Below, in pieces: positions 6,840 to 47,226 of a DNA stretch of 64,000 nt (within the stretch, counting starts at the first letter, position 1; the number at the start of each line of letters is the position of its first letter). The notes below the pieces were generated by a model. That model worked only from the letters and a program-made list of their open reading frames with translations. It did no database searches and was not told where the DNA came from. The stretch is from positions 1 through 64,000 of the IMG/VR virus record IMGVR_UViG_3300028590_000009, one strand, 5' to 3'. The position numbers and the translations under genes are program-made. The DNA is from a virus.

Positions 6840-9800
6840 ATGGCAACATGGCCGGCCTATAGCGCAGGCAGTGCGCGGATCACTTTGAAAGCCCAGCTCA
6901 GCAGTACTTTCAAGGCTGACACAAAAGCCCTCCTTGCTCCGATCAAGGAGGGCTTGAAGGTCACCGTCTCGCCTGCATTGGCGACAGGTTTCAAGGCTGA
7001 CCTGAAAGAGAAGATCAAGACCGCCGCCGAGGGCGTCGACCAGAAGATCGCGTTCAAGCCGAAGCTTGCCGTCGGGTTCAAAACCGATTTGAAAGCGTTG
7101 GTCAAGACTGCCACGACCACGCTCGATCAGAAGATCGAGTTTTCGGCGTCGCTGAAGACCGGTTTCAAAACCGATCTCAAGGACGCCATCGACCTGGAGC
7201 TGACCGAATTCGGTCCAGAAGCAGTCGAGTTCGCGCCCGCGCTGGTGACGGGGTTCAAGAAGACCTTGAAGTCGGCGATCGACACGGAACTCACCGAGTA
7301 CGTGGAGAAAGTCAAGTTCGCGCCCGAACTGAAGTCCGGGTTCAAGACTGACCTGACTTCCGCTATCGACACTCTGTTGAGCACGAAAGCGGCCACGAAG
7401 GTCGAGTTCGCGCCGAAACTCCGCAAGGGGTTCACCGCGGATTTGAAGCTGGCTCTTGGTGGCGTGCTGTCGAAGATCCGCCCGGAGACGATGATCGAGT
7501 TCCGGCCGAAGCTCGCCAAGGGTTTCCGCACGGATCTCAGCACCAAACTGACGACGTCGACGGGAACCCTGCGGCCGAGCATCCCCGTGGACGCGGATCT
7601 GACGCAGGCGTCGGCGCAACTGCTGGCGTTCCGTACCGCGCAGGCGAATGTTCCGTTGACGATGAACGTCAACGTCGACACGGCGTTGGCTGCCGCGCAG
7701 TTGATGGCCTTGCGGTCGCTGGCGTCTGCTGTCGGCACGCAGGTCGGCGAGATCGGCAACGGGGTCGGCGGACGCGGTTCGCGCGCATTGACGGGCAACA
7801 TCTTCACCCGCCCGATTCGCGCTATCCGTCTGCGGGTCGAGCTGGACCGCGCATCACTGGCAGCTGCCGAGGCGCGCTTGGCGAACATTCAGTCACGTCT
7901 GTCGAACGCTCGCGATTCCCAATCGGACGCGGTCGGCCGCTTGAACGAGGCTGAGGCGCGCCACAACGAAGTGATGCGGAACGGCAATTCGACGCTCTCG
8001 CAACGTATCGCGGCAACGAACCGTCTCGCGCGCGCACGTCGCGCGGCATCCGAGGCGAGTGGTCGCGTATCGGGGCTGATGGGCGAGGAGTACGACGCCA
8101 ACCGTCGGGTCGATCGCGAACGCGACAATCAGTCCGGGTTCCGTCGCATCAGCCGTCTCGCTTCGGCGGGCTTCAACGGGCTCACGTCCGCCATCGGCGA
8201 CAGTGCCAAAAGCATGCTGTCGTTCCGCAACCTCACCAACGTGGCGACCATCGCTCTCGTCGGCTTGGCCGCGGTGTCCCTGATCCCGCTGCTCGGCCAG
8301 CTGGCGCAGGCTGCGGGCGTTCTCGCCCTGCTCCCTGCTGCTGGCGCGGCTGCCGTGAGCGTCTTTGCCACCCTGGCCGTTGGACTCAACGGTGTCGGCG
8401 ATGCGTTCTCGGCCGCGAAGAAGGCTGCGGAATCGGCAGACGAAGACCAGGCTGCCGCTGCGAAGAAGGTTGCGTCGGCTGAACGTGGCATTACGTCTGC
8501 TGAGCGTGGCGTGCGCGACGCGCACAAGAACACCTTGCAGGCGCAGAAGGACCTCACCAAGGCGCGCAAAGACGCAGCCGAGGAAATCGACGACCTGAAC
8601 CGGGCGCTCGGTCGCGTCGCATTGACTGAAGAGGCCGCGGCTATCGCCGTGGCCGAGGCTCAGCGTGAGCTTTACCAGACGTTCATGGATCCCGATTCCG
8701 ATGCGATTGATCGCGCGCGGGCGCAAAACAATGTCAAGCAGGCATTGGCTGACCAGGACGACCTGCGGCGGTCGAATCGCAAACTCGCCGAGACGGTTGA
8801 GGAAGCGAATCAGAAAGGCGTCGAAGGCTCGGACGCCGTCGTTGAGGCCAAGGATCGTGTTACTGCGGCACAAGAGGCCGAAAGTGATGCGACACAGGCT
8901 CTTGCCGACGCATACGAGACTTTGGCCGAGGCGCAAACCGAAGCGTCGAAGAAGGCTGATGCCTTCAACGAGGCGATGGAGAAACTGTCGCCGAACGCAC
9001 AGGCTTTCGTCCGCGCCATCCTGGACTTGAAGGAGTCCTACAGCGGGTTGCGACGCGAAGTCCAAGATGCTCTGTTCGACAAGATGGGGATCGCGGTCTC
9101 CAGTCTCGCGACCAAGTCGCTGCCGACCCTGAAAACCGGCCTGACCGGTATCGCGACCGAGATCAATCAGGGCGTTCGCCGTGCGATGGCCGACTGGCAG
9201 TCCGATGCCACACAGTCCACGCTCGCCAAGCTGTTCGAGAACGTCAAGAACTCGGTCGGCGGCGTGGTCGACGGCATCAACAACCTCGTCCAGGGCTTCC
9301 TGAATCTCGCTGCGGTCGGATCCGAATCGCTGCCCGGACTGTCGAACAGCTTCGAGAACCTGACACTGCGGTTCCGCGAGTGGACCGAGAACAGCGAAAA
9401 CCAGCAGAAATTCCGCGACTTCCTTCGCGAATCGCTGGACACCCTGAAGCAGGTCATCGAAATCGGCGGGCAAGTCGGCGGCCTCATTAAACGCATCTTC
9501 GCGGGATCGGATGAAGTCGGCGAAGGCTGGCTGACGTCGATGTCGGAAACCTTGGACCGCTGGAACGCGTTCCTCGACACACCCCAGGGCAAGAAGGATC
9601 TTCAAGAATTCTTCGACGGGATCAAGGACACCGTAAGCGCTCTCGCTGCGGCACTCTCGACCGTCGCAGGATGGATCCAGAAAATTGACGGCTGGAATCT
9701 GGGCGACAAGCTCAACAGTTCGCCCGTCGGCGGCATCCTCGGCCTCTTCGATGGCAATAAGACGCCATGGGAGAAAGCGAAGGGTGTCGGATCTGCCGCA

Positions 9801-12161
9801 CGCGGCGCCGTCTGGGATCACAATATCCCGGCACAGTGGGCCGCCGATCAGGTTCTGAAACCCGAGCAGTGGACCATCGCCAAGGACGTCGCGAACGGCG
9901 TAGGCGACTGGTTCTCCGATCAAAGCCAGAAGGTCGCCGACGCGATCCCCAGCATGATCCTCGGGTTCAACGACCTCAAAACAGGGATCTCCGAATGGGG
10001 CACCAGCTTCGCCGACTTCAGCATCAACTGGGGCGAGGACTGGGACAGCGCGAAAGCGTCCGCCAAAGCGGGCGCGGAGTTCATCCTTGGCGAAGAGGGC
10101 CTGGCGAAGCTACAAAAAGGCTTCGACAACCTGCCCAACTACTTCTCGGGGCTGGTCGGCGCAATCGGCACCGCCTGGGACGGGCTGGGTTCACGCCTGC
10201 AAGGCCCGATCAACACCGTGATCGACGCCCTGAATTCGATGGGCGAAGTCTGGAACAAGGTCGCCAAGAAGCTCGGCTTGCCCGAATGGGATCCAATCCA
10301 GCCTGGGAAGGCGCAAGCGTCGCGGGCACCGAACCAGTTCAAGCCGATCCCAGGTCGCGCCAAAGGCGGTCCTGGTGGTCCGTACTTCTCCGGCCGCGTC
10401 GATGGCCCCGGCAACAGGTACGACGACCAGGCTGGCGAGTATCGACTGTCGCGCGGTGAGCACGTACTCACCGGCGACGAGGTTGATGCAGCGGGCGGCC
10501 ATGACGCCATTTTCCGGTGGCGTCGCAGCCTGCGGCAGGGCGGCGGCAAACAGTCGCGCGGTGATGGCTTCGCTGACGGCGGCGGCATCAGGCAAACCAG
10601 CGATCCGCTCGACCCGATCCAGTTGCACCTGTGGGATCTCGTGCGCAACGCGATCCCCAGCGCGGTACTGACTTCGGGTAAACGCTTTCAGGACGCAGGC
10701 AGTGGCTTCGACCTGCACATGCAGGGCAAAGCGATTGACCTCGGCGGCCCTATGAAGCAGATCGCCCAGTGGATCTACAACACCTACCCGCAGAGCGCGG
10801 AGTTGATTCACTGGCCGCTCGACGGATTCCAGAACATCAAGAACGGATCCCCGCTCAACTACGGCTCGGCCACCAACGAGGCGCATCGGGACCATGTCCA
10901 TTGGGGCGCAACCGATTTCCTCACCCAGCTCTCGGACGAGGACAAGGCGTCACTGTTCGATCGTGTCCGCTCCGGGCTCGGCGGCCTACTGTCCAGTGGC
11001 CGCGGCCTCCTGGTCGAGAACCTGGTTGGCAAGCCGTTGCGCGGCATCGCCGACAACGTGCCGGAACTCGGCGGGCTCGGCGAATTCGGCAAGTTCCCGA
11101 AAGCGTTCGCCCAGAAAATGGCGCAAGCCATCACCTCCTGGGTGAGCGAGCGTTTCGGCGGGTCCAGCGACAACCCCACCGACTACAACGTCACAGCAGG
11201 CGTTGAACAGTGGCGGGACATGGCACGAGAAGCCATGCGCCGCGTCGGTTTCGATGCCGACAACGAGCAGCAAGTCAACGCGATGCTGGCTCAAATCCAG
11301 TCGGAGTCCGGTGGCAACCCGAACATCGCCCAACAGATCACCGACATCAACGGCACCGGCGAACAGGCTGGCGTCGGACTACTCCAGGTCATTCCGGGCA
11401 CCTATGACGCATACCGGGATCCCGAACTGCCCAACAACCGGCGAGACGCGTTCTCCAACATGGTTGCGGCACTGCGGTATTACAAGTCACGCCACGGCGA
11501 CGACCTCACCAAAGAGTGGGGGAAGGGTCACGGCTACGACCAAGGCGGCATGTTCCCGCACAACACGTTCGGATTCAACATGTCCGGCCTGCCCGAAGCG
11601 GTCCTGACCAATCCGCAATGGAAACTGTTCGAGCAGTTCATCGGCCAAATGCCAGGCTTCAACAACCGGTTGCAAGCCCTCCCACAGCCACTCGGCGGAG
11701 GCACCAACGCAGACGGAACACCCGGCAACTTCGGTGTCCCGATCAGCCCTGGCGTCGACACCTTCGAGAAGGTTTTCGAGAAGGGCAAGGAACGGTTCGA
11801 GAACGTCGGCAAAACCGGGTTCGACGACCTCGTCTCCTCCACTCTCGGCCCGCTCGGCGTACCGGATCCGCGGTCGCTCATTCCGTCCGAGGTCACCGCA
11901 TACAAGGACACGCTGGACAAATGGCAGGTCGCTAGAGCCGCGTCCGCGCAAGCCTCGCAAGCCCTCGCCGATTCGGACTATCAGGCGGCACCGTCGCCTG
12001 TCGGTTCAGCCAATTCGGCCGTGCAGTCCGGTGGCGGCAATGGGGCGATGACGTCGAACGACTACTCGACGACCATCAACATTCAGACCGCCGACAACGC
12101 TGACGCATTCCGCAGGGCGCAACAGATCGCGGATCTTCGTGCAATTCAGCACGCCCGCTGA
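6840..12161 (+). CDS. Tape measure protein with M15-like and lytic transglycosylase domains
   Basis: A 1773-residue protein and the longest gene in the window, as expected for the ruler that sets tail length. In order: eight ~30-residue repeats (about 20-235); coiled coil (about 330-440); hydrophobic membrane-active segment (about 459-525); long Ala/Glu coiled coil (525-730); an M15/DD-peptidase-like domain near 1260-1360 with H1293, D1300, H1352 and H1354 in the DLHMQGKAIDL and HRDHVHWG motifs; then a soluble lytic transglycosylase domain near 1470-1560 with E1489 in QIQSESGGNPN. Such domains locally open the cell wall during DNA entry. The start at 6840 has AGGTGG upstream. Confidence 0.95.
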   Translation: MATWPAYSAGSARITLKAQLSSTFKADTKALLAPIKEGLKVTVSPALATGFKADLKEKIKTAAEGVDQKIAFKPKLAVGFKTDLKALVKTATTTLDQKIEFSASLKTGFKTDLKDAIDLELTEFGPEAVEFAPALVTGFKKTLKSAIDTELTEYVEKVKFAPELKSGFKTDLTSAIDTLLSTKAATKVEFAPKLRKGFTADLKLALGGVLSKIRPETMIEFRPKLAKGFRTDLSTKLTTSTGTLRPSIPVDADLTQASAQLLAFRTAQANVPLTMNVNVDTALAAAQLMALRSLASAVGTQVGEIGNGVGGRGSRALTGNIFTRPIRAIRLRVELDRASLAAAEARLANIQSRLSNARDSQSDAVGRLNEAEARHNEVMRNGNSTLSQRIAATNRLARARRAASEASGRVSGLMGEEYDANRRVDRERDNQSGFRRISRLASAGFNGLTSAIGDSAKSMLSFRNLTNVATIALVGLAAVSLIPLLGQLAQAAGVLALLPAAGAAAVSVFATLAVGLNGVGDAFSAAKKAAESADEDQAAAAKKVASAERGITSAERGVRDAHKNTLQAQKDLTKARKDAAEEIDDLNRALGRVALTEEAAAIAVAEAQRELYQTFMDPDSDAIDRARAQNNVKQALADQDDLRRSNRKLAETVEEANQKGVEGSDAVVEAKDRVTAAQEAESDATQALADAYETLAEAQTEASKKADAFNEAMEKLSPNAQAFVRAILDLKESYSGLRREVQDALFDKMGIAVSSLATKSLPTLKTGLTGIATEINQGVRRAMADWQSDATQSTLAKLFENVKNSVGGVVDGINNLVQGFLNLAAVGSESLPGLSNSFENLTLRFREWTENSENQQKFRDFLRESLDTLKQVIEIGGQVGGLIKRIFAGSDEVGEGWLTSMSETLDRWNAFLDTPQGKKDLQEFFDGIKDTVSALAAALSTVAGWIQKIDGWNLGDKLNSSPVGGILGLFDGNKTPWEKAKGVGSAARGAVWDHNIPAQWAADQVLKPEQWTIAKDVANGVGDWFSDQSQKVADAIPSMILGFNDLKTGISEWGTSFADFSINWGEDWDSAKASAKAGAEFILGEEGLAKLQKGFDNLPNYFSGLVGAIGTAWDGLGSRLQGPINTVIDALNSMGEVWNKVAKKLGLPEWDPIQPGKAQASRAPNQFKPIPGRAKGGPGGPYFSGRVDGPGNRYDDQAGEYRLSRGEHVLTGDEVDAAGGHDAIFRWRRSLRQGGGKQSRGDGFADGGGIRQTSDPLDPIQLHLWDLVRNAIPSAVLTSGKRFQDAGSGFDLHMQGKAIDLGGPMKQIAQWIYNTYPQSAELIHWPLDGFQNIKNGSPLNYGSATNEAHRDHVHWGATDFLTQLSDEDKASLFDRVRSGLGGLLSSGRGLLVENLVGKPLRGIADNVPELGGLGEFGKFPKAFAQKMAQAITSWVSERFGGSSDNPTDYNVTAGVEQWRDMAREAMRRVGFDADNEQQVNAMLAQIQSESGGNPNIAQQITDINGTGEQAGVGLLQVIPGTYDAYRDPELPNNRRDAFSNMVAALRYYKSRHGDDLTKEWGKGHGYDQGGMFPHNTFGFNMSGLPEAVLTNPQWKLFEQFIGQMPGFNNRLQALPQPLGGGTNADGTPGNFGVPISPGVDTFEKVFEKGKERFENVGKTGFDDLVSSTLGPLGVPDPRSLIPSEVTAYKDTLDKWQVARAASAQASQALADSDYQAAPSPVGSANSAVQSGGGNGAMTSNDYSTTINIQTADNADAFRRAQQIADLRAIQHAR
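6899..7545 (+). repeat. Eight degenerate ~30-codon repeats in the tape measure N-terminus
   Basis: Units share the core F-A/K-P-x-L-x-x-GFKTDLK, at about residues 44, 72, 101, 131, 160, 190 and 221, plus a divergent first unit near 23. Spacing is 28-31 residues, so the units are diverged at DNA level and probably structural rather than recombinogenic. Confidence 0.8.
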
Positions 12162-12175
12162 GGGGAACGCAATTG

Positions 12176-13102
12176 ATGCGTGATTCCGCCCGGATCGACA
12201 TCTACGGTGTGGACGGCTCGCATTTCGTCATCAACGGCCCGGGCGCGTCGGAAAAACTCTTTCTGCAAACAGATATAAAAGGAGTTTACGACGCCCCGGT
12301 CGTGACACGGCGAAAGTCGAGCGCCTACCAAAAAGGTGCGTCCTATGAGGGCAAAACATACAACCAGCGGGACATCACCTTTGGTGTAAGCATCAAAGGT
12401 GATGATCCCGCCGACTGGCAAAACCTCCAGGATCGCTGGAATGCCGCATGGGACTACGAGGTAGACCCGTGGGATCCCGATTCGACACTCACGAAAATGT
12501 CGGTCACCACCCCATCCTCGGGCACTCGCAGCCTGTGGCTGGCGAAATCTGACACAGCACAGTTCGAGTCGAAACATGACCCGCACATCACCCGCACGTC
12601 GATACAGCCGATGGCCGTTGTCGCCGATCAGCCGTTTTGGTTCGAAGACAAATGGGAGAACACTCCCTATGACTACTTCGAGACGGGCTCGTCGGGCACC
12701 TCCGAAGGCTTCGTGTCGATCGTCAACCCGACCGATCAGCCGATGTGGCTGCAATGGGTTGTCACCCGCGGCACCTGGACGCTCCCCGACTTCACCTGGA
12801 CGGGCAAGAAGCATCAGCGCGTACCAGGCGGGGCCTATCCGAATCGGAAGATCACACTTCCGGAGCTGACTGCGCTGGAGGGTGGCGCCCGCATCACCCT
12901 GTACCGCGACAAGTTGCAGGTACGCGACTGGGCTGGCACGAACCTAGCGGGGCGGATGAACGGAATCAGCTTCCTTCACCGCATCCCACCGAAGACGCCT
13001 GAAACCAACTTGCCCGTGAAGGTCGTCGGCGCACCTGTCGGCGGTGCGCGGGTCGAAGTTTACTGCGCGCGTCGATGGACTCACGTTTGGGAGCGTCGAT
13101 GA
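12176..13102 (+). CDS. Distal tail / minor tail protein (Dit-like)
   Basis: A 308-residue protein right after the tape measure, the Dit position. It has a beta-rich N-terminal half (ARIDIYGVDGSHFVINGPG) and a central aromatic stretch (WNAAWDYEVDPWDPDS), as in the actinophage minor tail proteins that start the baseplate and tail tip. AGGGGA nine bases before ATG 12176 sets the start; TTG 12173 is possible. The end overlaps the next gene (ATGA). Confidence 0.82.
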   Translation: MRDSARIDIYGVDGSHFVINGPGASEKLFLQTDIKGVYDAPVVTRRKSSAYQKGASYEGKTYNQRDITFGVSIKGDDPADWQNLQDRWNAAWDYEVDPWDPDSTLTKMSVTTPSSGTRSLWLAKSDTAQFESKHDPHITRTSIQPMAVVADQPFWFEDKWENTPYDYFETGSSGTSEGFVSIVNPTDQPMWLQWVVTRGTWTLPDFTWTGKKHQRVPGGAYPNRKITLPELTALEGGARITLYRDKLQVRDWAGTNLAGRMNGISFLHRIPPKTPETNLPVKVVGAPVGGARVEVYCARRWTHVWERR

Positions 13103-15276
13103 CAGACCTTCTAGAGCTGAGCCTTGAACAGCAATGTCGCGAGATCTGGGACGTCACCCTCGCGGCCGAGGAGGCGGACCGTAGGGCACGCCTGGAACCG
13201 CCGTTCGTCAGGATCTGGACAGGCGATTGGGACCTGAAAGGGATCCTGAACAGCGAATTCGTTGCCAACTTCAACTGGATTGAAAACGACGCGGGGACCG
13301 GCCTGACCGAAATTCCGCTCGATGACGATCTCGCGCGATGGATTTGGCAAGTTAGATCCCGCATCGACAACGGCGAGAAGCGGCACGTCTACATCACCGT
13401 CGAGAAAGACGGGGCGCAATGGTCGGGCCGCATCTTCGACCACAGCGTTGAGAAGCGCGAGGACGGCACGCGAGTACTGTCGGTGCGCTGGGTTCACGAC
13501 TTCGATCTACTGCGCAAGTATCTCGTTTGGTGCTCACCCTTTCTCCCCGACTTCGTGCAGGCGCCGCACGTCTTTTTCGTCCCAGGTCCCAGCATTTGGA
13601 GTCTGAAAACTTGCCTTTTCCTGAACGTAATGCGCGAACAGGAATCGCTGTACGAACTCGATGACGACCCACTCGATTTCGGCTCGGTCGGCATGTCGAA
13701 CTGGTCCGTTGTCGTCAAACCGACGACGTTTCTGGACGACCTGAACGCGGGCACTATCTGGTCTGTCCCGAACTCGCGGTTCAAGTACTGGACCGACATG
13801 TCGAAAGACATCCTCGAAGACGCTCAACTGTCCATTCAGGTGCGGCGTTTCATCGAGGGCGAGGATGAGCAGCCGATTGCGGGCGAAACCCTCCGTAACG
13901 GTGCGCTCGTCGTCGACATCGTAGACAAGTCGGGCTATTACAGCGACACCAGCAACGGTGGCGACCCCTTCACGGGACTCGCTCGCACGTTCGCGCAGTT
14001 CGCCGAAGACTTCATCGACGAGGTCATCGAGGATGTTGTCGACCCGGCAACGCCTGCTTCGTACAAGGTGCCCGGTCAACGCCTGACGGACAAGACATGC
14101 CCGTACGTGGTGTATCTGGAGGGCGAAGAGACCGGTATCGAGTCCGGGAAGTTCACGGCCACACCGAATTCGGCGATCCAGGTGGTTGCTGGAGGGCACT
14201 CGATGCCCTTCGTGAACGAGTTGATAAGCGCAGCGATCCAGTGCGTTTCGGGGGATACGGTCATCGATGGCCCCGATGGCGAGCAGCGAATCGATGCTCT
14301 CGCAGCCCGCGGCGGCCCGTTCCAAGTTTGGGCACTGACGCCCTCTGGCGAACGGGTTGCGGCTACCGCTGCCTTTGCCTTCAAAAAGGGGCGAGCCGAG
14401 CTTTTCCGATACACCTTCGCGAATGGTCGCTCCCTGACTGCGACGGCACGTCATCGCTGGCTGACGCGACAAGGATGGACCGCAACCGGGGAAACTCCAG
14501 TCGGTGCCGAGGTCGCCTCGGTCCGATACGAGCATCCCGAGGCGTACGTCACTGCGCCGGACGCCGATCTGGCGGACGAGGAATGGGTCGGCCTGGATGG
14601 CGGCGCAGTCGCCTATTCCGCGCTCGTGTCCGTGACGTCAGTCGGCGTTCGCGACTTCTACGACATGCACGTCCCAGGGTGGGTGAACTACTCCAGTGGT
14701 GGCGTCTGGTCGCACAACACAGCGGGCGACCTACTGGCCGCAGCTATCGTCATACCCCCCATTGGCGGGGCAGTCGATGCGGTGGCTCAGATTTTCTACT
14801 GGGACGCACTTTTTGCCTGGATGCATGCGAGAAGTAGTGGCCGAGTAGCGAATTCAGGATGGTCACGCCCGTTCGAGGTGATCGCGGCAGACGGCGACCG
14901 GGCGTACACACTCGAAGCGCTGCTATCTCTCCGCAAATCACTGCATGAGACGCGCTCCTACTTCTCGCACGAGATCAACATCCGCGACGGCGCCCCCTGG
15001 TACATCGGCGACCGAGGCAAAGGCCACTTCTTCCTCGGTGACCGCATCGGCGCGCAGGTGATCGGCGACTACGGCACCACCATGTTCGTCGACGACCACA
15101 CCATCTACGTCGACCGCGTCCGCGAACTGACCCTCGCATGGGATCGCGAATCGCCTCCCGAATGGGTCGCGACCATCGGCGACCAGGAAAAGAACAAAGA
15201 CCGCGGTCAACGCGCACTGGGCGCTATCGCCAATCTCGGCGGCCTCGTCCAACAGCTCGCCGTCCACGGCAAGTAG
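13099..15276 (+). CDS. Minor tail protein, ReqiPepy6 Gp37-like, interrupted by a mini-intein
   Basis: A 725-residue precursor. The N-extein (1-381) contains the beta-rich GDWDLKGILNSEFVANFNWI region of Gp37-like tail proteins, and the C-extein (541-725) contains the domain around FFLGDRIGAQVIGDYG with a conserved end. Residues 382-540 form an intein that begins with Cys and ends His-Asn before Thr. After splicing, SAAIQ would join TAGDLL to give a 566-residue tail protein, the normal length for the family. Members act at the tail tip, next to Dit. The start overlaps the upstream stop (ATGA); the 13075 start lies inside the previous gene. Confidence 0.9.
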   Translation: MTDLLELSLEQQCREIWDVTLAAEEADRRARLEPPFVRIWTGDWDLKGILNSEFVANFNWIENDAGTGLTEIPLDDDLARWIWQVRSRIDNGEKRHVYITVEKDGAQWSGRIFDHSVEKREDGTRVLSVRWVHDFDLLRKYLVWCSPFLPDFVQAPHVFFVPGPSIWSLKTCLFLNVMREQESLYELDDDPLDFGSVGMSNWSVVVKPTTFLDDLNAGTIWSVPNSRFKYWTDMSKDILEDAQLSIQVRRFIEGEDEQPIAGETLRNGALVVDIVDKSGYYSDTSNGGDPFTGLARTFAQFAEDFIDEVIEDVVDPATPASYKVPGQRLTDKTCPYVVYLEGEETGIESGKFTATPNSAIQVVAGGHSMPFVNELISAAIQCVSGDTVIDGPDGEQRIDALAARGGPFQVWALTPSGERVAATAAFAFKKGRAELFRYTFANGRSLTATARHRWLTRQGWTATGETPVGAEVASVRYEHPEAYVTAPDADLADEEWVGLDGGAVAYSALVSVTSVGVRDFYDMHVPGWVNYSSGGVWSHNTAGDLLAAAIVIPPIGGAVDAVAQIFYWDALFAWMHARSSGRVANSGWSRPFEVIAADGDRAYTLEALLSLRKSLHETRSYFSHEINIRDGAPWYIGDRGKGHFFLGDRIGAQVIGDYGTTMFVDDHTIYVDRVRELTLAWDRESPPEWVATIGDQEKNKDRGQRALGAIANLGGLVQQLAVHGK
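14242..14718 (+). mobile_element. Mini-intein (159 residues, no homing endonuclease)
   Basis: Block A is CVSGDTVIDGPDG with Cys1. Block B is GRSLTATARHRWLT with the TxxH residues. Block F is RDFYDMHVPGWVNYSSGG and block G is VWSHN, with the penultimate His and terminal Asn, followed by Thr as the +1 residue. All residues needed for class 1 splicing are visible. Length excludes a LAGLIDADG or HNH endonuclease, so it is a minimal splicing element fixed in the host gene. Confidence 0.9.
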
Positions 15277-15289
15277 GCCAGGAGCAGGA

Positions 15290-15955
15290 ATGTCTGAAGT
15301 CGATCAACTGCCGAAGCTGAAACCAGGGCAGTTTCCCGCGCAGGAACTCGTCAATCCGGACTGCCCTGAAGAGGCGTTCGTGTGGATGTTCAGTGGATTG
15401 CCTTCGATGAAAGGCGCACCGCTCCCATTTCCTATCGAGTACCTGAAACAGGTGTCTCGCCGGATGTGGGATTGCGGCGCCCGTCCGATGGGTTCGACTG
15501 TCCCGCCCGAGCAGACGATCAAGTATCAGCTGCCACGGAATACGGATCCGCATTGGTTGACGAGTCCGGGAGTGTGGGTGCCCATCGACGCGCCTGATCG
15601 TTCGAAACTTGATTACAAGGAATTCGTCAAGTCGTTGCCGCAGGACGCACGCCGACAGTTGGCGGAAGCGATGGGTTTCGATCCGATCGCCGCGGTTCCT
15701 GACGATCAACGTTTGGCCGACGCGCCTCCGACGCCGATGAAGTACGGCAAGCCGTCACGTGACGGTGCGAGTGTGAGCAACGAGCCCGTGCGTGATCCGG
15801 GCTGGAATCCGACTTCGCACCCTGTCGCCGAGGTGCTGGCGTATCTCGCGGAAGCGGATGACGCCGAGCGTGATCGTGTCCTGTCGATCGAACGCTACCT
15901 CGCGGCCAAGCCGCGCAAATCTATCCTCTCGCGATACCCGGAGGTGGGCGTCTAA
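15290..15955 (+). CDS. Phage gene 29-like protein (DUF2744 family)
   Basis: A 221-residue protein located between tail and lysis genes, as in L5-like and related actinophages. Two features match the gp29 family: an N-terminal region rich in Pro (PKLKPGQFPAQELVNPDCPE) and a short helical C-terminus with SIERYLAAKPRKSILS. Its role is unknown, probably tail-associated. The stop overlaps the endolysin start (TAATG). Confidence 0.75.
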   Translation: MSEVDQLPKLKPGQFPAQELVNPDCPEEAFVWMFSGLPSMKGAPLPFPIEYLKQVSRRMWDCGARPMGSTVPPEQTIKYQLPRNTDPHWLTSPGVWVPIDAPDRSKLDYKEFVKSLPQDARRQLAEAMGFDPIAAVPDDQRLADAPPTPMKYGKPSRDGASVSNEPVRDPGWNPTSHPVAEVLAYLAEADDAERDRVLSIERYLAAKPRKSILSRYPEVGV

Positions 15956-25150: not shown

Positions 25151-25346
25151 ACACGAAGCCCTCACCCGCCTGCTGTCCGCGCATCAACCGAGGGGTCGCA
25201 TCTGCATCGGCTGCACCGGCTGCCCTGATGTCGAGTTCATGACCAGCGTTGACCACGCCGAGCATGTGGCCGAGTTGATCACCGCGGAGTTCATCGTCAC
25301 CCCGAAGTCGGCAAAGAATGCGCGCGAAGCGCAGACGGGATTCTGA
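25143..25346 (+). CDS. Small protein with Cys pair, function unknown
   Basis: 67 residues, with ICIGCTGCPDVEF followed by a helix (AEHVAELITAEF). It lies directly ahead of the RNA ligase gene, one base before its start, so the two are likely co-expressed. Confidence 0.75.
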   Translation: MAEHEALTRLLSAHQPRGRICIGCTGCPDVEFMTSVDHAEHVAELITAEFIVTPKSAKNAREAQTGF

Positions 25347-25347
25347 A

Positions 25348-26520
25348 ATGAAGTCACTCGAAAACGGCAAACTGCTGTCCTGGGCAACCGAGATCGACGA
25401 AGCCACGATTAAGCAGGCAACCGCCCTGACCAGGCTCCCGTTCGTGCATCCGCACGTAGCATTGATGCCCGACGCCCATGCAGGCAAAGGTTCTAGCGTC
25501 GGCACAGTGATTCCGACCGTCGGCGCGGTCATCCCCGCTGCGGTCGGCGTCGACATCGGGTGCGGGATGGTGGCCGTCGAAACGGATATTCGCGACACCG
25601 ATCTCTTGGGCAAAGATCTCTCGACACTCCGGGAGCGCATCGAACAGGCCATCCCGCTGTCGCCAGGCAACTACAACTCCAGGATCAACCGCGATTCGGC
25701 GCAGGAAAGCATCGACAAGCTTGAGCGAATCGCAGCCATCAACTCGGTGGATCTCTCGCACTCGCCGAAGTGGCGCGAACAGTTGGGCTCGCTCGGCGGC
25801 GGTAACCACTTCATCGAACTCTGCGTGGACAAAGCAGGCTGGGTGTGGCTGTTCTTGCACTCCGGGTCGCGCGGCGTCGGCAACAAGATCGCTCAGAAGC
25901 ACATCAAGATCGCGCAGTCGTGGTGCGCTGAGAACGGCATCGAACTGGAAGACAGAGACCACGCCTACCTGTCCGATGCGACATACGAGTTCCAGGACTA
26001 CATGTCAGAGCTTCGATGGGCGCAGAAGTTCGCCAGGCTGAACCGAGACGAGATGATGGATCGGTTCATGGACGTGTTCGAAGACTGGCTCGGCTGGGCA
26101 GTGGTCGCATGCAATCGGATCAATACACACCACAACTACACCGAGCAGGTCGATTTCGACAAGACGTCGGTCTGGCTGACGCGCAAGGGCGCAATCGATG
26201 CCTCCCTGGGCGTTTGGGGGCTCATCCCCGGTTCAATGGGTACCGGGTCGTATGTGGTTCAGGGTAAGGGCAATTCGCAGGCGCTGTACTCGGCCCCGCA
26301 CGGCGCTGGGCGTCGATTCTCTCGCACGCAGGCTCGAAAGACCTTTACCGCCGAAGATCTCGCGGCGCGCATGACCGGTATCGAGTACCGTCACGGCGAA
26401 GAGTGGATTGACGAGATCCCGGACGCATACAAGCCGATCACGGAAGTGATGGAAGCGTCAGCCGACCTGGTTGAGGTCAAGCATGAGCTTCGTCAGATCT
26501 TGAACGTGAAGGGTACCTGA
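25348..26520 (+). CDS. rtcB: RtcB-type RNA ligase (3'-phosphate / 5'-hydroxyl)
   Basis: 390 residues, complete. The family blocks are in order: PDAHAGKGSSVGTVIP, GVDIGCGM (C72), GSLGGGNHFIE, HSGSRGVGN, INTHHNYTEQ and APHGAGRRFSR with H318, the residue that is guanylylated in RtcB. The enzyme seals RNA broken with a 2',3'-cyclic or 3'-phosphate end, such as tRNA cut by anticodon nucleases. The start is set at ATG 25348, one base after the preceding stop; the GTG-like extension upstream overlaps that gene. A terminator follows, so it ends the operon. Confidence 0.95.
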   Translation: MKSLENGKLLSWATEIDEATIKQATALTRLPFVHPHVALMPDAHAGKGSSVGTVIPTVGAVIPAAVGVDIGCGMVAVETDIRDTDLLGKDLSTLRERIEQAIPLSPGNYNSRINRDSAQESIDKLERIAAINSVDLSHSPKWREQLGSLGGGNHFIELCVDKAGWVWLFLHSGSRGVGNKIAQKHIKIAQSWCAENGIELEDRDHAYLSDATYEFQDYMSELRWAQKFARLNRDEMMDRFMDVFEDWLGWAVVACNRINTHHNYTEQVDFDKTSVWLTRKGAIDASLGVWGLIPGSMGTGSYVVQGKGNSQALYSAPHGAGRRFSRTQARKTFTAEDLAARMTGIEYRHGEEWIDEIPDAYKPITEVMEASADLVEVKHELRQILNVKGT

Positions 26521-30137: not shown

Positions 30138-31394
30138 ATGGCGCAAGAAGCATTGGAAGCAGGCGGATGGCCGCCCAAACACAAACTGATCCCCGAGAAA
30201 GGCGCTGACGGGGTTTGGCGACTGACCAAGGTTCGCCACCGCACCTACGGCGGACGTTACGTGCGCACGAGCGGCGCGGGCGCCACAAGGAAAGAGTGCC
30301 TGTCCGATTGGGAGAAACGGTTCGAGGTGAACCGTCAGAAAGGCTCCGCGCACAGCAGTTCCACCAAACGCCGCGAGTTCGAACCAGCCGACAAGATGGC
30401 GGTCGTGTTCGACGCCTTCATCGCCGCACAGGAACGCAAATGTGAGGCAGGCAAGATCACGCGCCAAACGCTGGTGTCGTATCGGCAGTCGATCTACCCC
30501 GTCGAGAACGGTGGTAGCCCGGACTCGATCAAGCTCATGCGCGAACTGGGCGACCTGACGATCGCCGAGGTCGGCAAGCCGAAGTTCCTGGCCGACTACC
30601 TGGAAGACATCGCCGACGCCTCACCCGGGTATGCGGCCCGCCACCACCTGATCCTGACCGTGGTGTTCAAAATGCTCACCCTCGCAGGATTGTTCGACTT
30701 CTCCCCGATGGCGCCTGTTCCTCAGCCTGGTATTCGGGGTGGTTCGCAGCGGGCGTTGACCGCGGATGAGCGGGACGCCCTGTATGACGTGTTGTTGGCG
30801 GCGTCACCGCGCACGAAGTATCTGCGCCCGTTGACGTTGACGTTGCTGGGCACGGGGGTCCGTCCGGGGGAGGCGCTGGCCCTGCGGTGGATGGACGTCG
30901 ATGGTTTGGATGATCCCGAGGTGGATCGGGCGACGGCGTATGTGTGCGGAACTTTGGTGTCGCGCGGCGGGGTGACGTTTCGGCAGCCGAGGCGCAAGTG
31001 CGGCAACTCCTACTACCTGACTTTGCCGCGTTGGCTGACGACGGTGCTGCGGGCATGGAAGGCGGATGTGAAGCCATCGTCGGTGGAGCGTCCGATGTTC
31101 GAGTCGTTGCGGGGCGGGTTGTTGTCGCCGCGGACTGCTGAGAGCACGTTGAAGCGTGCGCGGACGGGTTCGGCGTTGGAGTGGGTGAAGTTCGGCAATC
31201 TCCGAGACACCGTGGCTACTCATGTGACTGGGGTGTCGGGTGATCCGAAGCATGCTAGTGCTCAGTTGGGGCATTCGGAGGGGGCGTCGTTGGCGATGCG
31301 TCATTACATCGATTCCGCTGGTTACAAGCATCCTGCGGTCGATAACGCGGACGCGTTGGAGCTGTTGGCGCCGAGCAAAGTTACACCAAAGTAG
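30138..31394 (+). CDS. int: Tyrosine-family integrase
   Basis: 418 residues. N-terminal arm-binding region (about 20-60), SAM-like core-binding domain (about 80-190) and catalytic domain (210-400). Catalytic residues visible: R242 in GTGVRPGEALALRW, R356 in NLRDTVATH, H379 in LGHSE and Y390 in MRHYI. The HxLRH box is altered: Gly353 stands where His is usual and Asp357 follows R356. It catalyses site-specific recombination between attP and a host attB. GGAGG lies seven bases before the ATG. Confidence 0.92.
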   Translation: MAQEALEAGGWPPKHKLIPEKGADGVWRLTKVRHRTYGGRYVRTSGAGATRKECLSDWEKRFEVNRQKGSAHSSSTKRREFEPADKMAVVFDAFIAAQERKCEAGKITRQTLVSYRQSIYPVENGGSPDSIKLMRELGDLTIAEVGKPKFLADYLEDIADASPGYAARHHLILTVVFKMLTLAGLFDFSPMAPVPQPGIRGGSQRALTADERDALYDVLLAASPRTKYLRPLTLTLLGTGVRPGEALALRWMDVDGLDDPEVDRATAYVCGTLVSRGGVTFRQPRRKCGNSYYLTLPRWLTTVLRAWKADVKPSSVERPMFESLRGGLLSPRTAESTLKRARTGSALEWVKFGNLRDTVATHVTGVSGDPKHASAQLGHSEGASLAMRHYIDSAGYKHPAVDNADALELLAPSKVTPK

Positions 31395-41730: not shown

Positions 41731-41812
41731 CAAGCTTTGCACGCATTGGAGTGCGTGCGGCCAAGCAGTCAAATCGATTGCTGGCATGCGGCCCACCAGG
41801 AGGGGCCACCGT

Positions 41813-42931
41813 ATGAGTGTAACACGCAGACTGCGTTTCGAAATACTTCGGCGAGACGAGAATACGTGCCGATACTGCGGGGCCAAAGCGCCCGACGTAA
41901 AGCTCAACGTCGACCACGTGATCCCAGTCGCGCTCGGCGGTAGCGATGATCCGTCGAACTTGGTGACCGCTTGCGTCGATTGCAACGGCGGCAAGACCTC
42001 TATCGCGCCCGATAGTGCTGTTGTCGCGGACGTTTCGGCTGACGCTCTCCGCTGGAAAGATGCGTTGAAGCAGGCCGCAGCGGAGCGGGCAGCCGAATAT
42101 GCAGGCAATCGCGCCGTACACGATCAGTTCCAAGACCTCTGGAATGCGTGGACCTTCGACGGTCGAACAGTTCCGCTGCCATCAGATTTCGGCAGCTCGG
42201 TCAACACGTTTCTTGCGGCGGGTCTCACGTTCGCGGATCTCGAAGAACTGATCGACGTCACGATGGCGATGAAGACCGTCAAAACGGCTACGCACAAGTG
42301 GAAGTACTTCTGCGGCTGCTGCTGGAAGCTCATCAAACAGTCGCAGGAGCGGGCTCAGGAAATTGCCTCACACCAAGGAGCCGAACAAAAGGAACGTCAA
42401 CAGGCCGAGCAGGAACGGCACTGGCAGCAGGAACAGGGAAATTGCTGGCTAGATTCTGACTTGCGGCAACAAGAAGAGGCCCACTCAGACGAAATGGAGT
42501 GGGAATCTTGGCAGTCCGCTCGTCGGAGCGATGAATCGGCGCAGCCCGACGACGCGGTGAGCATAGGCCAGATATTCGACCAGCTATTCAGCCGACCCAC
42601 GACCGGGCCGCTCGTGGACCCCTTTGGCGCCTGGTCCGAATCGAACGTCCGAAAGCTCCTGCATTATGTGACCTCGCATGACGGTAGCGGGCATGACGAC
42701 GCCACGGTCGCTCAATGGGGCGAAGAGGCGAACCGCGAATGGGTGACAGATTCGGGTCTGTCGATGATCGGAGACGTTTTCACCACGGTCGGCACCTTCT
42801 TCTCCCAGCAAGAACATGGGCTCCGTCCCAATGAGGCAATCAGCCCGCAGGCCATCACTCAAATGATCGACTCCTATCGGCGCCCCGCCGCGGGGGAGCG
42901 TCACCTTAAGGCGGTTCCCGATGCCTCGTGA
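41813..42931 (+). CDS. HNH endonuclease
   Basis: 372 residues, start set at ATG 41813, with AGGAGG about ten bases upstream. N-terminal HNH: C19 and C22 in CRYCGAK, D34 H35 in VDHVIPVALGG, N49 in SNLVTACVDCN with C54 and C57. The rest is a long Gln/Glu-rich coil plus a C-terminal region with no known match. Phage HNH proteins nick or cut DNA; a DNA-packaging HNH would normally sit beside terminase, so this one may act in replication or recombination. Confidence 0.88.
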   Translation: MSVTRRLRFEILRRDENTCRYCGAKAPDVKLNVDHVIPVALGGSDDPSNLVTACVDCNGGKTSIAPDSAVVADVSADALRWKDALKQAAAERAAEYAGNRAVHDQFQDLWNAWTFDGRTVPLPSDFGSSVNTFLAAGLTFADLEELIDVTMAMKTVKTATHKWKYFCGCCWKLIKQSQERAQEIASHQGAEQKERQQAEQERHWQQEQGNCWLDSDLRQQEEAHSDEMEWESWQSARRSDESAQPDDAVSIGQIFDQLFSRPTTGPLVDPFGAWSESNVRKLLHYVTSHDGSGHDDATVAQWGEEANREWVTDSGLSMIGDVFTTVGTFFSQQEHGLRPNEAISPQAITQMIDSYRRPAAGERHLKAVPDAS

Positions 42932-45517: not shown

Positions 45518-45802
45518 ATGACTGCTCGACTGACGCAAGCTGAAATCAGCGGCGGCTGGTGGAACGTGAACTGCTGCGACGGCAAGTTCTCCGGTTCGAT
45601 GACAGCGCATTGCACCGCCTGCTGCCAAACGTTTTCGCGGCCGACAGTCGCGGACAAGCATCGGCGGTATGGCAAGTGTGTCGACCCTGCGAGCCATCGC
45701 GACGTGAACGGCGCTCTCGTGTTCAAGGATGCCGGCCGCGCTTACCCGTGCTGGTCGGGCGCCGGCGATGAGACCGCGGCGTGGGTCGGGGCGCGGACGT
45801 GA
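45518..45802 (+). CDS. FDXHR-type putative zinc-binding protein
   Basis: 94 residues, start ATG 45518 with GAGG ten bases upstream; the upstream frame is rejected. The pattern HCTACCQTF, then ADKHRRYGKCVDPASH, follows the FDXHR family found near methylases in actinophages. It is coupled (GTGA) to the methyltransferase gene. Confidence 0.72.
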   Translation: MTARLTQAEISGGWWNVNCCDGKFSGSMTAHCTACCQTFSRPTVADKHRRYGKCVDPASHRDVNGALVFKDAGRAYPCWSGAGDETAAWVGART

Positions 45803-47226
45803 GGATCGGGTCACTTTTCAGCGGGGCGGGCGGACTCGACCTGGCTGCACTCGACCTGTTCCCCGGCTCGTCGATGGCGTGGCATTCGGAGATCGAACCT
45901 GCGGCGTGCAAGGTGCTCGCGCATCACTGGCCCGAGGTGCTGAACCTGGGTGATGTGAGCCGGATCGATTGGTCGACAGTCGAACCCGTCGATGTGCTCA
46001 CAGGCGGTTTCCCTTGCCAGGATCTCTCGCTCGCCGGTCAACGTCGCGGCATGGCTGAAGGCACCCGGTCGGGTCTGTGGTCGCACATGTTCGAAGCCGT
46101 TCGCATGCTGCGTCCGAAGTTCGTGTTGATCGAAAACGTTCGCGGGCTGCTGTCCGCGCAAGCAAGGAGGGGTGATGTCGGAGCCGTATGCGAGGTGGAA
46201 TCCGGAAGCGGGAGTGTGGGAGCAGGGGGAGACGGATCTCTTCGGGCGCTCGGCGCTGTACTCGGCGACCTTTCGTCAATCGGGTTCGATGCGTGCTGGG
46301 TGCTTGTACGAGCTTCCGATGTCGGCGCCTGCCATCAGCGAGCCCGCGTCTTCGTCCTTGCGTACCCTGCCGACTCCGCGGGCGAGTGCGACGCGTACGA
46401 GTCGATCGGCCGCGCTGGCGAAGGGGAGCCGGTCGGCACCCTCGTTGGAGCAGGCGACGGAGTTGATGCGAGGGGAGCTACCGAGGGAGTTCGACGGCTG
46501 GGCGGAGTTGCCTCCGTCGTGGCAGGTGGCGTAGCGAAGTTGCTGCCGACGCCGCAGGTGGCGGATGTGACAGGCGGGCACCGGACCAGGTCCGGTGCTC
46601 GCTCGAACGAACTGCTGTTGCCCGGTGTCGCGGAGGCATACACCGCTGGCGCGCTGCTCCCCACTCCCCGCGCATCGGACGGCACGAACGGTGGCCCGAA
46701 CCAGCGCGGCAGCAAGGGGGATCTGATGCTTCCGTCTGCGGTCGTGCAGTTGTTGCCGACACCGACGGCGTCGGAGGGCGAGCGGGGCGACTGTCCGGCC
46801 GAGCGAGCCCGGCGCACACCCGGCCTGATCTCGATCGATCACTACTTGCCGAGATCGAATGATTCGAATGATTCGTGGCGCTGGGGCCGGTTCGCGCCGG
46901 CTATTCACCGCCAAGAGCGACTGTCCAGGCCAGCGCCGCCCCCTACCGTACCTACCGAGGCGTGGCGCCGAATGGTCAAGCGTCGTCAGCAGTCCGGGTA
47001 TCCGAAGCCTGTCGGTATGCGCGGCTCGCTGGCGGTTCGCGTCCAGTTGAACCCGGCATTCGCGGAATGGCTCATGTTCTGGCCTGCGGGCTGGGTGACG
47101 GCTTCGGCGATCGGGTTGAAGCGCGCCGAGCAGCTGAAATGCATTGGCAACGGCGTGGTTCCGGTCCAGGCGGTGGCGGCGTTCCGGTTCCTGTTGTCTG
47201 CGGCGTCGAAGGCTGTCGCAGCGTGA
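45799..47226 (+). CDS. C5 cytosine DNA methyltransferase
   Basis: 475 residues, start GTG 45799 overlapping the FDXHR stop. Motif I: GSLFSGAGGLDL (9-14). Motif IV: GGFPCQDLS with C73. Motif VI: IENVRGLLS (111-119). Motif VIII: QRARVFVLA (180-188). Motif X at the end: CIGNGVVPVQ. The C-terminal half has repeated LLPTP units (PTPRASDG, PTPTASEG), a signature of a phage and actinobacterial subfamily. It methylates cytosine, perhaps to evade host restriction. Confidence 0.9.
   Translation: MRIGSLFSGAGGLDLAALDLFPGSSMAWHSEIEPAACKVLAHHWPEVLNLGDVSRIDWSTVEPVDVLTGGFPCQDLSLAGQRRGMAEGTRSGLWSHMFEAVRMLRPKFVLIENVRGLLSAQARRGDVGAVCEVESGSGSVGAGGDGSLRALGAVLGDLSSIGFDACWVLVRASDVGACHQRARVFVLAYPADSAGECDAYESIGRAGEGEPVGTLVGAGDGVDARGATEGVRRLGGVASVVAGGVAKLLPTPQVADVTGGHRTRSGARSNELLLPGVAEAYTAGALLPTPRASDGTNGGPNQRGSKGDLMLPSAVVQLLPTPTASEGERGDCPAERARRTPGLISIDHYLPRSNDSNDSWRWGRFAPAIHRQERLSRPAPPPTVPTEAWRRMVKRRQQSGYPKPVGMRGSLAVRVQLNPAFAEWLMFWPAGWVTASAIGLKRAEQLKCIGNGVVPVQAVAAFRFLLSAASKAVAA
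46175..46534 (+). CDS. Nested open frame inside methyltransferase gene (LPTP-type protein)
   Basis: 119 residues in the +2 frame relative to the methylase, with AAGGAGG upstream and ATG (or GTG 46172) start. It contains WNPEAGVWEQGETDLFGR, an AGCLYELPMSAPAIS segment and its own TLPTPRASATRTSRSAA unit, similar to the methylase repeats. Comparable small proteins occur beside phage methylases, so dual coding of this stretch is plausible, though unproven. Confidence 0.5.
   Translation: MSEPYARWNPEAGVWEQGETDLFGRSALYSATFRQSGSMRAGCLYELPMSAPAISEPASSSLRTLPTPRASATRTSRSAALAKGSRSAPSLEQATELMRGELPREFDGWAELPPSWQVA

What the first reader, a model, noticed from the sequence alone, without database searches (positions are those of the whole stretch)
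14242..14718. Mini-intein in a minor tail protein
Seen directly: all class 1 intein blocks with Cys1, TxxH, HN and +1 Thr, inside a ReqiPepy6 Gp37-like tail protein, with clean extein junctions. Known: inteins usually sit in replication, nucleotide-metabolism or terminase genes; an intein in a tail-tip protein is rare. Inference: splicing would restore the normal 566-residue tail protein.
Basis: partly seen in the sequence, partly recalled or inferred. Interest (0 to 1): 0.75.

Follow-up and report, generated by a model that had tools for sequence, protein, structure and literature searches.

The report
Site-switching mini-intein in phage baseplate hub
A Nocardia-type phage carries a small self-splicing protein element inside the protein that plugs the tip of its tail, and close relatives of that element sit at several different positions in the same tail protein of other phages, which inteins are not expected to do.

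Summary
Window 14242-14718 encodes a 159-residue class 1 mini-intein (C1, TxxH, terminal HN, +1 Thr, no endonuclease domain). It lies in a PF14594 protein homologous to the solved trimeric baseplate hub of mycobacteriophages (PDB 9d93, 8zdo), so 'minor tail protein' can be sharpened to 'baseplate hub'. The intein model is very confident (pLDDT 96) and matches DnaB and RecA mini-inteins. Removing it gives a 566-residue hub that aligns to PDB 9d93 across the junction and to intein-free Nocardia hubs. The new result is the family. Every close relative found (ten distinct inteins in all, at least 46% identical) is in the same hub protein, but at four secure and probably five positions. Intein and hub identities do not correlate: window and L030 hubs are 77% identical with 46% identical inteins three residues apart, while window and L019 hubs are 39% identical with 67% identical inteins at one site. 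Trees reject grouping by site for two sites (p about 0.01 and 0.03). A second, unrelated intein occupies another hub site. No hub intein was found in 50,697 phage records. Splicing is inferred, not shown. How HEN-less inteins change site within one gene is open.

The parts
13099..14241 (+). N-extein: residues 1-381 of the baseplate hub (PF14594, Gp37-like)
   Evidence: PF14594 E=4e-83; phmmer to PDB 9d93 gp25 E=2e-69 and 8zdo gp18 E=4e-33
14242..14718 (+). Class 1 mini-intein, 159 aa: Cys1, block B T68-x-x-H71, block F around DFYDMHVPG, block G His158-Asn159; no homing endonuclease domain
14719..15273 (+). C-extein: residues 382-566 of the hub, beginning with the +1 nucleophile Thr (ACA 14719-14721)
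12173..13102 (+). Gene directly upstream: distal tail (Dit-like) minor tail protein
   Evidence: PHROG 106 E=6e-67, PHROG 33 Dit E=4e-4
6840..12161 (+). Tape measure protein (context: order TMP, Dit, hub)
   Evidence: PHROG 7025 E=1e-190
15290..15955 (+). Gene directly downstream: Phage_gene29 minor tail protein
   Evidence: PF10910 E=2e-32
30138..31394 (+). Integrase (temperate phage context)
   Evidence: PHROG 1 E=6e-29

Best explanation
The element is a HEN-less class 1 mini-intein that excises itself after translation from the trimeric baseplate hub of a temperate, probably Nocardia-infecting, siphophage. It joins residues 1-381 to 382-566, so that an intact hub can fold, trimerise and close the tail tip. 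It belongs to one intein family confined, as far as sampled, to this hub protein. The family has spread horizontally between divergent Nocardia-type phages and has changed insertion site within the hub gene several times. Shown by computation: the intein, its fold, the hub homology, the empty sites, the horizontal spread and the several sites. Inferred: active splicing (from conserved catalytic residues, purifying selection and the need for a whole hub), and movement by phage recombination or by a homing endonuclease acting in trans or since lost.
For: Catalytic residues C1, T68, H71, D141, H158 and N159 are invariant in ten members down to 46% identity, with dN/dS about 0.13-0.2 although dS is near saturation. 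The model has pLDDT 96 and TM 0.8 to Ssp DnaB and Mtu RecA mini-inteins. The spliced extein aligns to the PDB 9d93 hub through the junction, E=1e-96, and to intein-free Nocardia hubs without a gap. The same family occurs in hubs at sites after window residue 381 (window, Nocardia niwae L018, N. vulneris L019), 378 (L017, L030, L031), 410 (L014, L032), 152 (L015) and about 376 (L016). Intein and extein identity are uncorrelated, r=-0.08. The site 381 group is a clade (99/96). The three 378 inteins and the two 410 inteins are not clades (AU p 0.03 and 0.013 on the ten inteins; 0.038 and 0.006 with outgroups). In 152 Nocardia genomes family members score above 200 bits, all in hubs; the next best inteins score under 50 bits.
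Against: Splicing has not been tested here. Pfam's intein model is below its gathering score for this single sequence. The clade tests are of moderate strength and the groups were named after the sites were seen. Other genes could hold unsampled relatives: the collection scans use few short patterns, and the family- and class-level genome searches scored only nine candidates per genome. The L016 site could be the 381 site with a five-residue deletion in that divergent hub; a clade of L016 with the 381 inteins is not rejected (p=0.055).
Confidence: 0.87

Rival explanations
1. The intein is domesticated: splicing is delayed or conditional and acts as a timer or checkpoint for baseplate assembly, because an unspliced hub could not trimerise or seal the tail. 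This would explain why a HEN-less intein persists in one gene and keeps being placed in it.
For: HEN-less in all members; confined to one structural protein with several sites. Sites 376-410 fall by alignment in the fibre-binding (vertex) domain of Douge gp18, residues 369-486 (PMC13033339). Sites in multimeric proteins make splicing a precondition of assembly (argued for TerL in PMC5050341).
Against: Only 7 of 81 hub-bearing Nocardia genomes have a detected hub intein, so it is dispensable. Purifying selection is expected for any intein that must splice out of an essential protein. No regulatory feature was found.
Confidence: 0.12
2. Separate invasions: full inteins with a homing endonuclease, unsampled so far, entered different hub sites independently from an outside pool and then lost the endonuclease; no movement inside the gene took place.
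For: HEN loss is common in inteins (general knowledge). Sites in Prp8 are explained by independent invasion (PMC6805012). All ten members are HEN-less, so the mobile stage is unseen.
Against: Inteins at different hub sites are 46-67% identical, above the general relatedness of at most 30% quoted in PMC5050341, and no close relative was found in any other gene. The closest cross-site pair (L014 and L016, 66.5%) is closer than most same-site pairs.
Confidence: 0.3
3. The domain does not splice but cleaves (bacterial intein-like or hedgehog-like), so the hub works as two pieces.
For: One member gives a weak PT-HINT match. Cleavage without ligation occurs in some HINT domains (general knowledge).
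Against: Cys1, block B, block G and a +1 Thr or Ser are conserved in all ten members, and the best structural matches are splicing inteins. Intein-free hubs are continuous there.
Confidence: 0.04

Closest known systems
DnaB mini-inteins (Ssp DnaB M86, PDB 6frh; 1mi8) and actinobacterial DnaB inteins
   Same: Same HINT fold (Foldseek E 2e-11, TM 0.8); same class 1 blocks; best profile match is the intein region of PRK07773 DnaB; best phage match is the PaV-LD DnaB intein
   Different: Only about 23-30% identical; host is a virion structural protein, not a helicase; several sites in one gene
Mycobacteriophage terminase (TerL1-a to -e) inteins, PMC5050341
   Same: Actinophage inteins at several sites of one multimeric phage protein, in prophages too
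   Different: Packaging ATPase rather than tail hub; general intein relatedness is quoted there as at most 30%, against 46-67% between hub sites here
Prp8 inteins, seven sites (PMC6805012)
   Same: One essential assembly protein that is an intein hot spot
   Different: [quoted passage not shown] the hub inteins do not all group by site
Siphophage baseplate hub proteins: PDB 9d93 gp25; 8zdo Douge gp18
   Same: The extein is a member of this family, E=1e-96 and 2e-45 over the spliced sequence
   Different: The solved hubs have no intein

Membership tests
Class 1 intein | N-terminal Cys or Ser (block A) | tested here: met
   Cys1 at 14242; invariant in ten members
Class 1 intein | Block B TxxH | tested here: met
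   T68-A-R-H71; invariant T68 and H71
Class 1 intein | Block G penultimate His, terminal Asn, +1 Cys/Ser/Thr | tested here: met
   H158-N159, +1 Thr; +1 Thr in nine members, Ser in L017
Class 1 intein | HINT fold | tested here: met
   AF2 pLDDT 96; Foldseek to 6frh, 3ifj and others
Class 1 intein | In-frame insert absent from homologues, exteins continuous without it | tested here: met
   Intein-free hubs L068, L070, L072 and others align without a gap; PDB 9d93
Class 1 intein | Self-splicing activity | not testable with these tools
   needs expression
Mini-intein (no homing endonuclease) | No LAGLIDADG or HNH domain inside | tested here: met
   159 aa; only intein models hit in Pfam and NCBIfam; model shows only HINT plus a short linker helix
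Baseplate hub, PF14594 | Homology over the full hub and gene order TMP, Dit, hub | tested here: met
Allelic intein rule (inteins at one site more alike than inteins at different sites) | Family groups by insertion site | tested here: not met
   Site 381 is a clade, sites 378 and 410 are not (AU p 0.03 and 0.013; 0.038 and 0.006)

The most novel reading that the evidence does not exclude
A HEN-less intein family lives only in the baseplate hub of Nocardia-type phages and relocates within that one gene, by a route other than classical homing, because late removal of the intein is useful as a check on tail-tip assembly.
Probability: 0.15. Interest if true: 0.85.

Novelty: new variant of a known kind. 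Interest (0 to 1): 0.62.

Why it matters
Inteins are thought to stay at one site, since homing needs flanking homology (PMC1635734). A set of close relatives at several sites of one gene, with the flanks available, makes the question of how inteins reach new sites directly testable. It also adds a virion structural hub, with solved homologues, to the list of intein hosts, and offers compact 154-179-residue inteins with Thr or Ser at +1 for protein engineering.

Tried and rejected
A whole-precursor AlphaFold2 model was poor (pLDDT 42) and is not used. A shared homing endonuclease in trans was sought with the window's HNH gene (41786-42931): the other intein phages have only domain-level matches, so no support. 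A common DNA target at the insertion sites was looked for by eye: only the +1 codon (ACN or TCN) recurs, with Gln at -1 in five of seven. Insertion in the most conserved hub stretches was tested: sites 152 and 376 lie at about the 90th percentile, the others at the 54th-74th, and four spread sites together give p=0.08, so only a weak trend. The 130-residue intein in G076 and G090 hubs (site after residue 160, +1 Cys) is a separate lineage; its viral-contig relatives look like ordinary longer inteins in replication-type genes by inspection. The terminase intein L004 is only distantly related.

Full report
Observation. The reading frame 13075-15276 (+) encodes a protein whose two halves match PF14594 (Sipho_Gp37, E=4e-83) with a 159-residue insert at 14242-14718. 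Homologues place the start at ATG 13099 (MTDLLELS; compare L018 MTDLSTLS and L030 MTELLDLS), so the precursor is 725 residues and the spliced form 566. The insert begins CVSGDTV, has TARH in block B, DFYDMHVPG in block F and ends SHN, followed by Thr. It passes the cut-off of TIGR01445. On its own it is below the PF14890 cut-off, but all ten relatives match PF14890. The model built on ten relatives has pLDDT 96 and matches Ssp DnaB, Mtu RecA and Npu DnaB mini-inteins with TM about 0.8.

Host protein. The N-extein alone matches two solved structures, both named baseplate hub: 9d93 gp25 and 8zdo gp18 of mycobacteriophage Douge. The spliced sequence aligns to 9d93 from residue 14 to 540 at E=1e-96, running through the splice junction. 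The gene follows tape measure and Dit-like genes, as expected for a hub. Cryo-EM papers describe the hub as a homotrimer that closes the tail tube and gates release (PMC13252515; PMC13033339). By alignment the window's site falls in Douge's fibre-binding domain (residues 369-486). An unspliced hub could hardly trimerise there; that is inference. The window record is 85 kb, has an integrase and an endolysin with LGFP repeats, and its nearest relatives by this gene are Nocardia prophages.

The family. Scans of viral contigs and genomes with this intein and with family alignments returned relatives in Nocardia niwae, N. vulneris, three further Nocardia genomes (G156, G114 with two copies, G032) and four viral contigs. 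All are 154-179 residues, lack an endonuclease, and lie in PF14594 hubs. In the 152 Nocardia genomes the six loci of the family score 210-278 bits and the next inteins, such as those in DnaB, under 50. Samples of 401 genomes of the family and 395 of the class gave no further member, though only nine candidates per genome were scored. INPHARED holds the hub in 2,009 records, and relatives of this intein there are only in helicase, terminase, ribonucleotide reductase and other genes.

Several sites. After removing the inteins in a script, all hubs and 20 further Nocardia hub frames were aligned (one of those frames, L087, is the G114 intein-bearing hub itself). In window extein numbering the sites are: after 381 (window, L018, L019; +1 Thr), after 378 (L030 and L031 with Thr, L017 with Ser), after 410 (L014, L032; Thr), after 152 (L015; Thr) and about 376 (L016; Thr). 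Sites 381 and 378 cannot be confused: window and L030 hubs are 77% identical and align without gaps there. L016 is divergent and its site might equal 381 with a five-residue deletion, so I count four secure sites. A second, unrelated intein of 130 residues lies after 160 with +1 Cys in G076 and G090. Thus 7 of 81 hub-bearing Nocardia genomes have a detected hub intein.

Movement. Intein and extein identities over all pairs are uncorrelated (r=-0.08). Window and L019 share the site and 67% of the intein but only 39% of the hub. Window and L030 share 77% of the hub but 46% of the intein, three residues apart. L014 and L016 have 66.5% identical inteins at different sites in hubs 25% identical. 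In trees the 381 inteins are a clade (99/96), whereas holding the three 378 inteins or the two 410 inteins together is disfavoured (AU p 0.03 and 0.013 on the ten inteins; 0.038 and 0.006 with outgroups). dN/dS is about 0.13-0.2, with dS near saturation: the inteins are under purifying selection, as any intein in an essential protein should be. In intein-free hubs the residue at the +1 position of site 381 is usually Met, Phe or Ala, so gain there needs the Thr codon to come along.

Comparison with the known. As a mechanism this is an ordinary class 1 mini-intein. The unusual parts are the host, a virion baseplate hub, and the breach of the allelic rule. Published accounts hold that movement to new sites is very rare and that inteins at one site resemble each other more than inteins at other sites (PMC1635734). 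Prp8, with seven sites, obeys that rule (PMC6805012). The mycobacteriophage survey lists terminases, nucleases and other genes, and the word tail does not occur in its text (PMC5050341). I found no paper on a hub or tail intein of this kind in the open library, but the library is partial.

Verdict. The wider finding is a hub-confined, site-switching mini-intein family. What remains unknown is the route of movement and whether splicing is merely tolerated or used.

Noticed in passing
L108, L109, L111, L114 (G102:C10:245745-245794, G026:C1:9606509-9606557, G121:C162:81852-81896, G006:C54:3725-3774); L110 (G096:C8) and L112 (G078:C99): Six Nocardia prophage hub genes are interrupted by a 45-70 nt near-perfect palindrome (about 20-23 bp stem, fold z -6 to -11) carrying frame breaks or stops, at ..AAC CCC TTT| in four and ..TGC TGG| in two, within about 16 residues of intein sites 152 and 160. 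Stem sequences differ yet still pair, the rest of the hub looks intact, and a pattern for the four-genome type occurs in 152 Nocardia genomes only at these hub sites. Translational bypass, RNA removal, or a site-specific palindromic insert are all open. The window's hub does not have it.
   Followed up: partly
L089 1035-1424, L090 1086-1475: A distinct 130-residue mini-intein (+1 Cys) in hubs of two other Nocardia genomes, at FPKTWA|CFGPARW.
   Followed up: partly
L091 and L092 (G114:C98:122000-126000 and 179500-183500): One Nocardia contig holds two hub genes with the same intein-bearing hub protein, 57 kb apart. Two related prophages or an assembly duplication; not resolved.
   Followed up: no
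window 25318-26520: The phage encodes an RtcB-type tRNA-splicing ligase (PHROG 1075, E=5e-156).
   Followed up: no
window 41786-42931: Free-standing HNH endonuclease gene; a C5 DNA methylase lies at 45781-47226.
   Followed up: partly
L105 1201-1482 (Salmonella phage W5_chr3) and relatives: A partial intein-like match lies in the minor capsid or head morphogenesis protein of several Salmonella phages, a possible second case of a HINT domain in a virion or assembly protein.
   Followed up: no
L100 (G078:C99:25500-28000): A Nocardia ThyX-like protein with a 306-residue intein containing an HNH-like region, judged by eye.
   Followed up: no
L015 6001-6537: The L015 hub intein has an extra stretch CNCPHHGAAGLVRLCPVH in the linker where an endonuclease would sit, perhaps a zinc-finger-like remnant.
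   Followed up: no
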